A DNA stretch of 64,000 bases from Tunturibacter empetritectus (GTDB lineage: Bacteria > Acidobacteriota > Terriglobia > Terriglobales > Acidobacteriaceae), in assembly GCF_040358985.1 (NCBI RefSeq), contig NZ_CP132932.1, positions 4,464,001 through 4,528,000 on the forward strand. The letters run 5' to 3'. The position numbers were made by a program, and so were the translations under genes. Each line of letters begins with the position of its first letter. The stretch's first letter is position 1. The notes under the pieces were generated by a model. It was given only the letters and a program-made list of their open reading frames with translations, had not been told where the DNA came from and ran no database searches. Shown one piece after another: positions 8,716 through 44,132 of the stretch.

Positions 8716-8843
8716 GGACTACCTCGGTGTTGATTTTGCGTGTGCCTACGATCGGTTGCGGGCTTGCGCGACCTTGTGATTTTAGCATGTTGAGGGGGGA
8801 ATCATGCATCCGGTTCGAGGAGGGTTCGCGCTGTCGCGCGAAT

Positions 8844-13867: not shown

Positions 13868-13925
13868 GTGTCCTGCCGGACGGGCCCACTGCGCGTGGCG
13901 CGGCCACTTCGTGGCGTGCGTGTCG
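13868..13925 (+). repeat. Repeat R1, copy A (truncated)
   Basis: TGTCCTGCCGGACGGGCC followed by CTGCGCG and CCACTTCGTGGCGTG matches the left half of the R1 unit. It lies between the TPR gene stop (13938) and the esterase start (13772). Other copies are at 22200, 25828, 25968, 39556 and 44033. Confidence 0.8.
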
Positions 13926-13937
13926 TGCTGCGCACCT

Positions 13938-22199: not shown

Positions 22200-22296
22200 C
22201 GTCCTGCCGGACGGGCTCCCTGCGCGGGAGGCGGTCACTTCGTGACGTGTGTACCGGTCTCGATGGGTTAGGAGTGTGGGTCCTCCCTTTGGTCGG
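22200..22296 (+). repeat. Repeat R1, copy B (full)
   Basis: CGTCCTGCCGGACGGGCTCC, CTGCGCGGGAGGCGG, TCACTTCGTGACG and the far end GGTCCTCCCTTTGGTCGG make a complete unit. It fills the gap between the convergent phosphatase and gpmI genes, so it may act as a 3' end or terminator element for both. Confidence 0.85.
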
Positions 22297-22303
22297 AAGA
22301 AAA

Positions 22304-23926
22304 TTAGTCGGCATTAGGTTTTGCGCGGAGGTTGCCGCCGGTCATTTGGTTGGGTTGTTCTACGTTTAGCAGCGACAGGATAGTGGGGGAGATGTCGCGC
22401 AGGCTGCCGCCTTCGCGCATGGTTGGCTTGTTGCCGTCTTTGGTGATGTAGAGGAAGGGTACGGGGTTGGTGGTGTGGGCCGTGTGCGGGCCGCCGGTTG
22501 CGGGGTCGATGAGCATCTCGGCGTTGCCGTGGTCGGCGGTGACCAGAAGCGAGCCGCCGCGTTGTTTGATGGCTTGATAGATGCGGCCTAGTTGGGTGTC
22601 CACGGTTTCGACGGCGCGGATGGTGGGCTCCATCTTGCCGGAGTGGCCAACCATGTCGGCGTTGGCGAAGTTGACGATGATGACGTCGAAGGCGGTGTCG
22701 TTGACGGCTTTGAGGACGGCATCGGCGATGCCTGCGGCGGACATCTCGGGGGCGAGGTCGTAGGTGGCTACCTTTTGCGAGTCGACGAGGGCGCGGTCTT
22801 CGCCGGGGAAGGGCTTTTCGATGCCGCCGTTGAAGAAGTAGGTGACGTGGGCGTATTTCTCGGTCTCGGCTACGCGGAGGTTGCGGAGGTTGGCCTGGGA
22901 CATGAGGTTGGCTAGGAGATTGTCCATCGACTCGGCGGGGATGACGATGGGGAGTTTGAAGTTTTTGTCGTACTGGGTCATGCAGACGTAGTGGAGGTTG
23001 GAGGGGATGAGGTCGAGGGGGATCTCGGCGTCGAGTTCGGCGGCTTTGGGGAGTTGATGGCCCTGGCTGCCGATGGGGTCGGCGGTAAGGCCGGACTTGC
23101 GGGTGAGGACGCGGGTGATCTGGCGGACGCGGTCGGCGCGATAGTTGAAGTTGATGACGACGTCTTCGTCGCGGATGAGGGCGATGGGGTCGCCTTCTGA
23201 GTTAGTGCAGGTGAAGGGTGGGATGAACTCGTCGGTAATGCCGCTGTTGTAGAGGTCCTTGATTCGAAGGAGTGGGTCAGGGTAGGTGCCGCCTTCGGGG
23301 TGGCCGGTAACGAGGGCGTCAAAGGCCTGGTGCTCCTTCTCCCAGCGGCAGTCGCGGTCCATGGCGTAGTAGCGGCCGCTGACGGAGGCGATGTGGCCGA
23401 TGCCGGCTTCGCGGAGGGTCTGCTGGAGTAGTTCTAAGTAGCCGAGGCCGCTGGTAGGCATGGTGTCGCGGCCATCCATAAAGGCGTGGATGTAGACGCG
23501 GGTGAGCCTATGCCGGGCGGCCATGCGGATGAGGGCGTCGAGGTGGCGCTGGTGGGAGTGGACGCCGCCGTCGGAGAGGAGGCCGATGAGGTGGAGTGCT
23601 CTTCCCTTCTGGGCTGTCAGCTCATAGGCGCGGACGAGCGTGGGGTCGGTGTAGAGGCTGCCGTCGAGGATCGCGGTGTCGATGCGGGTCATGTCCATGC
23701 GGACGATGCGGCCGGCACCCAGGTTGAGGTGGCCGACTTCGCTGTTGCCCATCTGGCCGTCGGGGAGGCCGACGAAGTGTTCGCTGGCGCGGAGGAGAGT
23801 GTTGGGGTAGTCGCGGAGGAGCGCGTCGTAGGTGGGTTTGCGGGCCTGGGCGATGGCGTTGCCGTGGGTCTCGGCGCGGTAACCCCATCCGTCGAGGATG
23901 GTGAGGACTACAGGTGCTTTGGGCAT
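22304..23926 (-). CDS. gpmI: 2,3-bisphosphoglycerate-independent phosphoglycerate mutase
   Basis: The 540-residue cytosolic enzyme interconverts 3- and 2-phosphoglycerate using two Mn ions and a phosphoserine. [10 protein letters not shown] gives the first metal Asp, [14 protein letters not shown] carries the nucleophile S62, and later FINHADMVGH-type ([12 protein letters not shown]) and TADHGNAEM motifs complete the metal site. Phosphate-binding [13 protein letters not shown] is intact. The length is typical. Its glycolytic neighbour enolase is encoded 2.1 kb further on, on the same strand but not in the same operon. Confidence 0.97.
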
Positions 23927-25111: not shown

Positions 25112-25810
25112 TTACGGGACAAGAGCGGGGAGGAGTTCGGTGGCGGTGCCGAGGAGGATCTCGTCGAAGGCTTCATGGTTGAGTGGTTCTTCGGGGCCGA
25201 TGTAGATGGTGCGAGTGCCCTGCTGGTTGGCGATGTGGACGAGGCCGGCAGCAGGATAGACGGAGCCGGAGGTGCCTACGACGAGGAGGACAGTGGCGCG
25301 TTCGAGCTTGCGGTAGATGGCGTCCATGTCGAGGGGGATTTCGCCGAACCAGACGATGTGAGGACGGACGGGGGAGCCGCAGCGATCGCAGGTGGGGAGG
25401 GTTGCGGCGGTCTCGTAGAGAGCGGTGTCTGAGAAGGGCTGGTTGCAGCGGGTGCAACGGGATTGGAAGAGGTTGCCGTGCATGTGGTGGATGCGCTGGG
25501 AGCCGGCTTGCTCGTGGAGTTCATCGACGTTTTGCGTGCAGAGGTAGAAGCGGTCGCCTAGTTGATGTTCGATTTTGGCGAGGGCGATGTGCCCAGCGTT
25601 GGGTTGGGCAGAGATGGCATTGCGGCGGCGCTGGGAGTAGAAGTGCCAGACGAGTTCGGGATCGGCGGCCCAGGCTTCTGGAGTGGCTACCTGCTCGACG
25701 CGATAGCCGTTCCAGAGGCCGCCGGAGCCGCGGAAGGTGGCGAGGCCGCTTTCGGCGGAGATACCGGCTCCGGTTAGGACGAAGAGACGGTCTTGTGGGG
25801 TTACGTGCAT
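25112..25810 (-). CDS. Sirtuin, NAD-dependent protein deacylase
   Basis: About 232 residues from the ATG at 25810 (MHVTPQDRLFVLTGAG). The Sir2 fold is clear: GAGISAESGLATFRG, TQNVDELHEQAG with the catalytic His further on in HMHGNLFQSRC, a zinc ribbon with CTRCNQPF and CDRCG, VRPHIVWFGEIP, and GTSGSVYPAAGL. ALA-free TFRG and the later RxxxY region suggest the CobB-type class III deacylases that remove acyl groups, but this is not decisive. The frame stays open upstream to 26065, through two R1 repeats and an inverted repeat; that extension is repeat DNA, not protein. Confidence 0.93.
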   Translation of the reverse strand: MHVTPQDRLFVLTGAGISAESGLATFRGSGGLWNGYRVEQVATPEAWAADPELVWHFYSQRRRNAISAQPNAGHIALAKIEHQLGDRFYLCTQNVDELHEQAGSQRIHHMHGNLFQSRCTRCNQPFSDTALYETAATLPTCDRCGSPVRPHIVWFGEIPLDMDAIYRKLERATVLLVVGTSGSVYPAAGLVHIANQQGTRTIYIGPEEPLNHEAFDEILLGTATELLPALVP

Positions 25811-25827: not shown

Positions 25828-25958
25828 TGTCCTGCCTGACGGGCCCGCTGCGCTTGGTCACCCCGCAAACAAAGACCTGTTTGCGGGGACCCCGATTCGG
25901 GCGGTCACTTCGTGACTTGTGTTGCTTGTTTAGAGGCATGAGTCCTCGCGTTGCTCGG
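25828..25958 (+). repeat. Repeat R1, copy C (with nested hairpin insert)
   Basis: TGTCCTGCCTGACGGGCCCG begins the unit, GGTCACTTCGTGACTTG is the middle and GTCCTCGCGTTGCTCGG the end. Between the left and middle parts an extra inverted repeat (CCCCGCAAACA, six bases, TGTTTGCGGGG; 25861-25888) is inserted that other copies lack. Copy C faces copy D end to end. Confidence 0.8.
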
Positions 25959-25984
25959 CTTTGGATTCCGAGCAACGCGAGGAC
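25942..25984. repeat. Perfect 17-bp inverted repeat
   Basis: GTCCTCGCGTTGCTCGG and its exact complement are separated by nine bases. The arms are the facing right ends of R1 copies C and D. A transcript from either strand would fold into a very stable hairpin between eno and the sirtuin gene; no T-run follows. Confidence 0.85.
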
Positions 25985-26066
25985 CTTTGATGCTTGGCTG
26001 CCGAGACCGGTATACCCGTCACGAAGTGACCGCGCGCCGCGCAGGCGGCCCGTCCGGCAGGACATT
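25968..26066 (-). repeat. Repeat R1, copy D (inverted)
   Basis: Read on the minus strand this is TGTCCTGCCGGACGGGCC, CTGCGCGG, CGGTCACTTCGTGACGGG, then TACCGGTCTCGG and the GGTCCTCGCG end. It begins next to the enolase stop codon (26068) and is the mirror of copy C. Confidence 0.85.
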
Positions 26067-26067
26067 T

Positions 26068-27731
<1,664 letters not shown>

Positions 27732-39541: not shown

Positions 39542-40106
39542 GTTTGCTGCAGAGCTGTCCTGCCGGACGGGCCTCCTGCGCGGAGTGCGGGTACTTCGTG
39601 CCTTGTGTACCCCTTCGGGTGCGGCTCCCGCTGGTCGCTTTCAGTTTCGTCGCTTTGTCGGTGCTGGTTTGGTTTGTTTGCTCGCAGTGGTGATGCTGGG
39701 GGCTACGCCTGCATCGCGATTCGATAAGGTGGGACACGAGATGATGTGTGCCTGCGGATGCGGGCAGATTCTGCTGGAGTGCAACCACGTGGGGTGCCCG
39801 GATTCAGATAGGATGATTGGGGAGTTGCGCGACCAGATTGCGGGTGGAGGCTCTGACAGCGCGGTGATGAGCTGGTTCGAGACGAAGTATGGGGCGACGG
39901 TGCTGGCGGCACCGATACGTGGGGGGTTCGATAACGTGGCGTGGATCGCGCCGATGGCGGTGTTCTTGCTCGCTACGATTGGAACGGGATTGCTGGTGAG
40001 GATGTGGTCGCAGCGGTCGGCGCAGCGTCGGTCTGTAAGCGCGGCGGGGCCTGTGTTGGGTGGCGATGCTGTGCGCGAGCGGATTCGGCGGGAGACGGAG
40101 TACTGA
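39534..40106 (+). CDS. ccmH: Cytochrome c maturation protein CcmH, N terminus encoded by a repeat
   Basis: About 190 residues from the ATG at 39534, overlapping the ccmF stop by eight bases. The functional CcmH part begins with a membrane helix (FVGAGLVCLLAVVML) and the thioredoxin-like motif MCACGCGQILLECNHVGC, with paired Cys for apocytochrome reduction; a second helix (IAPMAVFLLATIGTGLLV) follows. Residues about 8-35 are translated from R1 copy E (39556-39638), which explains the Arg/Leu-rich, foreign-looking start. Alternative starts inside the helix (TTG near 39670) would cut the membrane anchor. The next gene starts two bases after the stop. Confidence 0.88.
   Translation: MFEFAAELSCRTGLLRGVRVLRALCTPSGAAPAGRFQFRRFVGAGLVCLLAVVMLGATPASRFDKVGHEMMCACGCGQILLECNHVGCPDSDRMIGELRDQIAGGGSDSAVMSWFETKYGATVLAAPIRGGFDNVAWIAPMAVFLLATIGTGLLVRMWSQRSAQRRSVSAAGPVLGGDAVRERIRRETEY
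39556..39638 (+). repeat. Repeat R1, copy E, inside the ccmH reading frame
   Basis: CTGTCCTGCCGGACGGGCCT, CTGCGCGGAG, GGTACTTCGTGCCTTGTGTA and the end GGCTCCCGCTGGTCGC match the R1 unit from left to right. It stays in frame with ccmH. Confidence 0.85.
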
Positions 40107-44032: not shown

Positions 44033-44132
44033 TGTCCTGCCGAACGGGCTCCCTGCGCGGGAGGCGGTCACTTCGTGACTTGTACACCTTTTCCGGGGTA
44101 TGGTGAGTTTGCTGGTCCTCCCGTTGGTCGGA
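44033..44132 (+). repeat. Repeat R1, copy F (full)
   Basis: TTGTCCTGCCGAACGGGCTC, CTGCGCGGGAGGCGG, TCACTTCGTGACTTG and GGTCCTCCCGTTGGTCGG form a complete unit very similar to copy B. It lies between the convergent ZIP and NHL-repeat genes. Confidence 0.85.

What the first reader, a model, noticed from the sequence alone, without database searches (positions are those of the whole stretch)
25828..26066. Two R1 copies in mirror orientation form a 17-bp perfect hairpin
Copies C and D meet end to end between eno and the sirtuin gene. Their ends give a perfect 17-bp stem with a 9-base loop. Such pairs are known from REP/BIME elements and are often the mobile unit. Any transcript through the gap will be strongly structured.
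Basis: seen in the sequence. Interest (0 to 1): 0.6.

Follow-up and report, generated by a model that had tools for sequence, protein, structure and literature searches.

The report
Soil-bacterium paired hairpin repeat family
The hairpin between the enolase and sirtuin genes is one copy of a family of hairpin-rich DNA repeats in the soil bacterium Edaphobacter, many of which sit just after stop codons and differ from strain to strain in whole hairpins while staying in place.

Summary
In detail: 25942-25958/25968-25984 is a perfect 17-bp stem with a 9-base loop, in the middle of a mirror-symmetric element (25828-26064) between eno and a sirtuin gene. It is one of many: the own genome (Edaphobacter lichenicola group, Acidobacteriota) holds at least 150 arms. 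The unit is a half: three small hairpins plus half of the central one, alone or in outward-facing pairs (17 of 17 close pairs). The arm hairpins covary on both sides. Arms tend to abut stop codons (peak 4-8 nt; eno 4 nt). Between strains the sites persist while hairpins change as intact modules: 30 of 112 orthologous arm comparisons keep the same stem. It works like a REP/BIME, but membership tests fail: no GTAG tag, no CGTC-type stem, no Y1 transposase flanked by it (0 of 50 loci); four repeat-rich genomes have no Y1 match. No target-site duplication was found. Most likely action here: a stem-loop barrier in an eno-sirtuin transcript (inferred, untested). Filed as a new variant of a known kind. 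Two oddities: exactly one non-C:G pair in most variable stems, and a pair at one place among phage genes in four other genomes.

The parts
25828..26064 (.). whole paired element (two inverted half units)
   Evidence: outer inverted repeat 26 nt, 88%; family comparison
25829..25941 (+). left half unit without its half-centre, 'long' arm type; its first hairpin has one mismatch (GTCCTGCCTGAC)
25861..25888 (+). extra 11-bp hairpin of the long arm type (25861-25871/25878-25888, loop 25872-25877)
   Evidence: read from the sequence; same module in other long arms
25904..25916 (+). hairpin H3 of left arm, GTCAC-TTC-GTGAC
   Evidence: read; H3 as counted
25942..25958 (.). central stem, left side (half-centre of left unit)
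25968..25984 (.). central stem, right side (half-centre of right unit)
26003..26064 (-). right half unit, canonical arm: H1 26063-26060/26055-26052, H2 26048-26044/26038-26034 (CCGCC-TGCGC-GGCGC), H3 26030-26026/26022-26018
26068..27516 (-). eno ORF (Enolase_N from residue 56; the real start is probably the ATG at 27360); stop codon 4 nt before the GTCC end
25112..25810 (-). sirtuin gene (SIR2); start codon 17 nt from the element
13869..13930 (+). single R1 arm
22200..22310 (+). single R1 half unit with half-centre
39556..39640 (+). single R1 half unit
44033..44130 (+). single R1 half unit with half-centre

Best explanation
The feature is one paired member of a REP/BIME-like repeat family found mainly in the Edaphobacter genus. 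SHOWN: the monomer is a half unit (outer hairpin H1, variable hairpin H2, hairpin H3, half-centre); two halves in mirror orientation make the pair, and their half-centres make the 17-bp stem. SHOWN: the local hairpins are preserved by two-sided changes, and whole hairpins or arm types differ between strains at sites that persist. INFERRED: the exchange is non-allelic gene conversion between copies. INFERRED: copies first spread by an unidentified hairpin-recognising enzyme and are kept because a stem-loop a few bases after a stop codon is tolerable or useful. INFERRED for this site: eno and the sirtuin gene are read in one direction, with the eno stop codon 4 nt before the GTCC end and the sirtuin start codon 17 nt after the element, so a joint transcript must carry it; the structure should hold back ribosomes and 3' exonucleases at the end of eno and lower expression of the sirtuin gene relative to eno.
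For: Copy number: 150 arm matches at E <= 2.4e-18 in the own genome (only 150 candidates scored). Orientation: 17 of 17 pairs of these arms closer than 400 nt face outward. Covariation in 44 own canonical arms: 96.4% cells paired vs 87.7 shuffled, score 0.236 vs 0.068, slid controls 0.012-0.065. In a set of 25 rows (2 from the window, 23 from other genomes) all three helices have pairs changed on both sides, score 0.418 vs 0.132, slid at most 0.084. Unit: half-centre motif (4 of 13 mismatches allowed, which chance alone gives to roughly a tenth) in 316 of 330 arms; with a stricter motif 104 of 153 single and 135 of 171 paired arms. Position: ORF of 120+ codons ending within 150 nt of the outer end in 182 of 268 arms, 65 of them at 4-8 nt; 35 of 268 with the anchor moved 300 nt. 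Pairs: gene end on both sides 25, on one side 38, on neither 4, of 67. Module exchange: 112 orthologous arm comparisons (flanks 85-100%, median 91%): 29 same H2, 33 different and both perfectly paired, 17 different with a mispair, 31 changed arm type, 1 both non-canonical, 1 identical; they come from 64 sites, of which 48 show more than one state and 16 one. Known precedent: REPs within 15 nt of a stop codon lower translation (PMC12306157, passages); REPs lie close to gene 3' ends (PMC3733652 section 15).
Against: No expression data. Single arms with only one gene end beside them show no orientation preference (21 outer end first, 26 inner end first), which speaks against a strand-specific RNA role. 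The RNA fold of lowest energy is one long rod joining the arms, not the local hairpins that covary. No mobiliser found. In the relatives without R1 the two genes are not neighbours, so the effect of the repeat on this gene pair cannot be read from comparison. Many loci were fetched because they resemble the repeat, so pairing percentages may be upper estimates. The 112 comparisons are not independent.
Confidence: 0.6

Rival explanations
1. REPIN mobilised by a RAYT (Y1 HUH transposase), as in Pseudomonas and E. coli.
For: Pair layout, hairpins, gene-end position and absence of target duplications fit. Y1 genes are common in the genus (49 of 60 genomes).
Against: 0 of 50 Y1 loci carry an R1 end within about 1.5 kb (less where a contig ends): 30, the own 2, 18. 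They include all 31 Y1 matches of the 16 repeat-rich genomes that have any, but only about 50 of the 129 matches. One more Y1 locus, in another genus with weak R1 matches (L330), has none either. Of 20 genomes with 12 or more arm matches, 4 have no Y1 match (G002, G014, G028, G029); of the other 40, 7 have none. The own Y1 gene in L042 is flanked by a different repeat.
Confidence: 0.15
2. Short non-autonomous transposon (MITE) of a DDE transposase, the R1 ends being its terminal inverted repeats.
For: Conserved outer ends, pair length mostly 160-240 nt.
Against: No direct repeats beside 99 pairs clearly above chance at 2-12 nt and three offsets; 153 of 324 arms have no partner. DDE genes flanked by R1 were not searched for.
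Confidence: 0.07
3. A dedicated two-way transcription terminator kept by selection on RNA.
For: Sits after stop codons and between gene ends; present at one place among phage genes in four genomes.
Against: The only terminator-like hit inside the element is weak and on the + strand, and the region as a whole has 6 hits against 3.7 (sd 2.1) in shuffles. G.T pairs are about as rare as other mispairs in the variable stem, 9 against 13 of 834 cells; RNA-selected stems usually hold more G-U (recalled).
Confidence: 0.2
4. No function: perfect stems are kept by template switching during replication, not by selection.
For: Two-sided changes almost without G.T intermediates; such a process is described for RNA genes (PMC8794818, abstract, introduction start and outline).
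Against: Template switching alone does not explain changes of whole arm type (31 of 112) nor that 35 of 50 changed stems differ at exactly two pairs, as expected if one existing allele replaces another. It does not explain the gene-end position.
Confidence: 0.2

Closest known systems
BIME / REP of Enterobacteria and Pseudomonas (GTAG superfamily)
   Same: Many short palindromic units between genes, single or in mirror pairs, close to gene 3' ends; mosaic inner motifs (the last recalled)
   Different: Half unit of roughly 95-135 nt with several hairpins instead of 20-40 nt (size from the abstract of PMC3733652); no GTAG tag; no RAYT beside any copy tested
CGTC-REP families 1-4 (PMC3733652, section 6 read)
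   Same: Outer end reads TGTC in most copies; mirror pairs; no transposase link
   Different: No 8-9 bp stem with A/T first pairs next to the tag; GTCC itself is paired in H1. The CCA tail was not looked for
TIR families beside TIRYT genes in Acidobacteria (PMC3733652, section 16 read)
   Same: Same phylum, inverted repeats in moderate numbers
   Different: Those lie beside tyrosine transposase genes; R1 lies beside none of the 50 Y1 loci tested

Membership tests
REP/BIME in the broad sense | high-copy palindromic units, single or in mirror pairs | tested here: met
REP/BIME in the broad sense | located at gene 3' ends | tested here: met
   63 of 67 pairs have a gene end on at least one side; 182 of 268 arms
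GTAG-REP (RAYT/REPIN type) | GTAG tag at the foot of the hairpin | tested here: not met
   the conserved end is (T)GTCC paired with GGAC, and no GTAG shows in the 30 nt outside it; note that arms were found by this end motif
GTAG-REP (RAYT/REPIN type) | cognate RAYT gene flanked by the repeat | tested here: not met
   0 of 50 Y1 loci
CGTC-REP | unpaired CGTC/TGTC tag, then 8-9 bp stem with A/T first pairs | tested here: not met
   alignment A1: GTCC pairs with GGAC, the next stem has 5-6 pairs; definition
MITE of a DDE transposon | target-site duplication | tested here: not met
   99 pairs, none clearly above chance
Curated RNA family | match to an Rfam model | tested here: not met
   whole window, gathering threshold, 0 matches
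Translation-lowering REP (within 15 nt of a stop codon) | distance of at most 15 nt | tested here: met
   eno 4 nt; 103 of 268 arms
Translation-lowering REP (within 15 nt of a stop codon) | measured ribosome stalling | not testable with these tools
   needs an experiment

The most novel reading that the evidence does not exclude
R1 is a pool of exchangeable hairpin modules without a transposase of its own: sites after stop codons act as sockets, intact hairpins are copied between sockets by gene conversion, and each variable stem obeys a code of exactly one non-C:G pair among three positions (248 of 259 fully paired stems; 119.5 expected), read by an unknown hairpin-binding factor; phages carry such a socket too.
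Probability: 0.2. Interest if true: 0.78.

Novelty: new variant of a known kind. Interest (0 to 1): 0.5.

Why it matters
REP-like repeats are usually explained by a RAYT transposase. Here a family with at least 150 arms in one genome is abundant also in four genomes without any Y1 transposase match, and its hairpins change far faster than the DNA around them while staying paired. It offers a natural data set, several related strains with flanks about 91% identical, to separate three causes of compensatory change (selection on RNA, selection on DNA hairpins, copying between repeats), and a testable set of hairpins placed a few nt after stop codons in a soil phylum.

Tried and rejected
Rfam on the whole window: nothing. 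Exact arm pattern in IMG/VR: 0 contigs; a relaxed pattern was not tried. Target-site duplications and complementarity of the outer flanks: not clearly above chance, although four single elements (L029, L104, L004, L080) have 7-8 nt matching flanks. Linkage of H2 with its loop, tail or spacer: within the shuffled range; same H2 in both arms of a pair 13 of 46, 8.3 expected, so the idea that the two arms are kept identical was dropped. Tail and spacer next to each other ARE linked (0.473 bits, shuffled at most 0.368). The idea that the AAG-rich outer flank is only the stop codon of the neighbour was dropped, because arms without a near gene end show it too. The first ortholog grouping joined unrelated sites at 75-83% identity in one cluster of 14 arms; one search uses only flanks of 85% or more over 150 nt. 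One search used a mis-registered structure for H2 and H3; one search is the corrected count and the only one used. In A2 the row L137 probably does not hold the arm (its contig begins within the flank), and it was left in the count. Stretches (L089-L099) were fetched and used only for arms, not compared gap by gap. Literature: the R1 sequence was looked for in one search, which found only an unrelated plant paper; other searches for a described family were (listings). Papers: PMC3733652 outline, abstract, passages and sections 6, 15, 16; PMC12306157 passages; PMC8794818 abstract, start of introduction, outline.

Rows dropped before counts: motif places without an H3-like hairpin (a recount over all loci, finds 56 of 393 such places; about 1.8 chance hits per 64 kb); arms within 110 nt of a locus end; within 900 nt of an end for gene tests; canonical arms out of register (284 to 278); same-locus ortholog pairs.

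Full report
WHAT IS THERE. The pair lies in a 237-bp symmetric element, 25828-26064. Its outer ends are an inverted repeat of 26 nt (88%), and its middle is the perfect 17-bp stem with a 9-base loop. Its GTCC end lies 4 nt after the stop codon of eno, and the element ends 17 nt before the start codon of a SIR2 gene; both genes run on the minus strand. Six R1 ends lie in the window at five sites. A search of the own genome gives 78 BLAST matches from only 40 scored candidates, and a covariance model of the arm gives 150 matches at E <= 2.4e-18 with only 150 candidates scored. The true number is therefore probably higher.

ANATOMY. Printed side by side, the copies show a common plan. An arm reads TGTCCTGCCGGACGGGC, then a variable hairpin, then GGTCACTTCGTGAC, then a tail (TTGTATACC or similar), then half of the central stem. 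It folds into three local hairpins: H1 GTCC-TGCC-GGAC, H2 with a stem of 5-6 pairs around TGCGC, and H3 GTCAC-TTC-GTGAC. Some arms carry an extra hairpin in place of the right half of H2 ('long' type, 28 of 330; the left arm here), others differ in another way (18 of 330). The half-centre is present in 316 of 330 arms with a loose motif, and with a strict one in 104 of 153 single and 135 of 171 paired arms, so the monomer is arm plus half-centre. Of 324 arms with enough sequence, 171 have an inverted partner end within 330 nt and 153 do not. All 17 close pairs among the 150 scored own arms face outward.

THE HAIRPINS ARE REAL. In 44 canonical own arms 96.4% of cells pair against 87.7% in shuffles, and the covariation score is 0.236 against 0.068. 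In a set of 25 rows, 23 from other genomes, where the outer end may differ (for example GCGC-TGCC-GCGC), H1, H2 and H3 all have two-sided changes: 0.418 against 0.132. In 278 canonical arms the three variable H2 pairs give 812 Watson-Crick, 9 G.T and 13 other of 834 cells. Arms fetched with the covariance model are biased towards pairing; those from the DNA pattern, which leaves these positions free, give 460 of 471 (5 G.T), the rest 352 of 363. An unexpected rule appeared: of 259 fully paired stems (19 of 278 are not), 248 have exactly one non-C:G pair among the three, 8 have two, 3 have none; shuffling gives 119.5 on average and at most 151. In the loci alone it is 139 of 146. I cannot explain it; avoidance of a sliding or slippage-prone CCCCC/GGGGG stem is a guess. 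Copies are related, so the shuffles overstate independence.

EXCHANGE OF MODULES. At the eno-sirtuin gap, G042 (same species) has the same element; G025 and G032, whose sirtuin is 89% identical, have pairs with the same H2 on the eno side but other hairpins on the sirtuin side and another centre. Over all fetched loci, 112 orthologous arm comparisons with flanks of 85-100% identity (median 91%) split into 29 with the same H2 stem, 33 with different but perfectly paired stems, 17 different with a mispair, 31 with a changed arm type, 1 both non-canonical and 1 identical. They come from 64 sites; 48 of these show more than one state, 16 one. Of the 50 changed stems 35 differ at exactly two pairs, 10 at one, 5 at three; two is what replacement of one existing allele by another gives. 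The loop changed with the stem in 24 of the 50 and stayed in 26. H2 is not linked to its loop or tail beyond the shuffled range. A few hybrids (left half of one allele, right half of another) are visible in the alignments. I infer non-allelic gene conversion with hybrids being lost; template switching may add to it (PMC8794818, abstract and outline only).

WHERE IT SITS. 182 of 268 arms have an ORF of at least 120 codons ending within 150 nt of the outer end, 65 of them at 4-8 nt, against 35 of 268 when the anchor is moved 300 nt; 103 of 268 lie within 15 nt. ORFs were called by length only, without a gene finder. Of 67 pairs, 25 have a gene end on both sides, 38 on one, 4 on none. Single arms: 63 between two gene ends, 21 outer end first, 26 inner end first, 11 neither, of 121. 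This is the placement of known REPs (PMC3733652, section 15), and REPs within 15 nt of a stop codon are reported to lower translation (PMC12306157, passages that cite an earlier study).

MOBILITY. Sites differ between strains: the sites at 39557, 44034 and 22201 are lacking in G055, 44034 also in G014, and 13870 was found only in the own species; a pair in G032 is absent from the matching places in the window and in G014. One 'empty' site (L302) is a deletion that left part of the repeat. Upstream of the sirtuin, 7 of 17 relatives have an R1 end within 400 nt, 9 have none and 1 has a doubtful hit. No target duplication beside 99 pairs. Y1 transposases: 49 of 60 genomes of the genus have a match, 129 matches in all; none of 50 loci examined carries an R1 end, and four of the 20 genomes with 12 or more arm matches have no Y1 match. 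Contig lengths identify G042, G025, G014 and G002 with strains M8UP22, M8US30, M8UP30 and X5P2.

COPY AMONG PHAGE GENES. Of 10 genomes with 1-4 arm matches, four (G001, G023, G045, G049) have an R1 pair between a Terminase_6C gene and a HipA_2-like gene; a phage portal gene follows in L139 and L140, and DUF3037 in L139. The other six have copies elsewhere. So the repeat seems to travel with phages or to be kept by them, but IMG/VR gave no exact match.

JUDGEMENT. Works like a REP/BIME: probably yes. Member of the GTAG or CGTC superfamilies, or a RAYT-driven REPIN: defining features tested and not met. Function at eno-sirtuin is inferred from position and fold alone.

Noticed in passing
L042:1740-2510 (G000 C1 about 617740-618510): The own Y1 transposase gene is flanked on both sides by another repeat (GGTGCCCCATCCTTTCGCAGTCTCATCGCGATAGGGTGGGGTATTCGCGCC...), probably the repeat that belongs to that gene.
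   Followed up: no
L139:9503-9700, L140:9238-9434, L310:about 1350-1562, L312:about 1366-1562: R1 pair at one place in four other Edaphobacter-group genomes, between terminase and HipA-like genes.
   Followed up: partly
window 39557 against L071:7468: Within one species the arm type differs at this site: canonical in the window genome, long type in G042, with flanks about 90-92% identical there while the other four R1 sites of the window are 98-100% identical.
   Followed up: no
window 8823-8843 (-): Another palindromic unit, ATTCGCGCGACAGCGCGAACC, beside the place where G032 carries an R1 pair and the window does not.
   Followed up: no
window 26068-27516: The listed eno ORF starts too far upstream; the enolase N-terminal domain begins at residue 56, so the ATG at 27360 is the likely start.
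   Followed up: no
canonical arms of all fetched loci: Exactly one non-C:G pair among the three central H2 pairs in 248 of 259 fully paired stems, cause unknown.
   Followed up: partly
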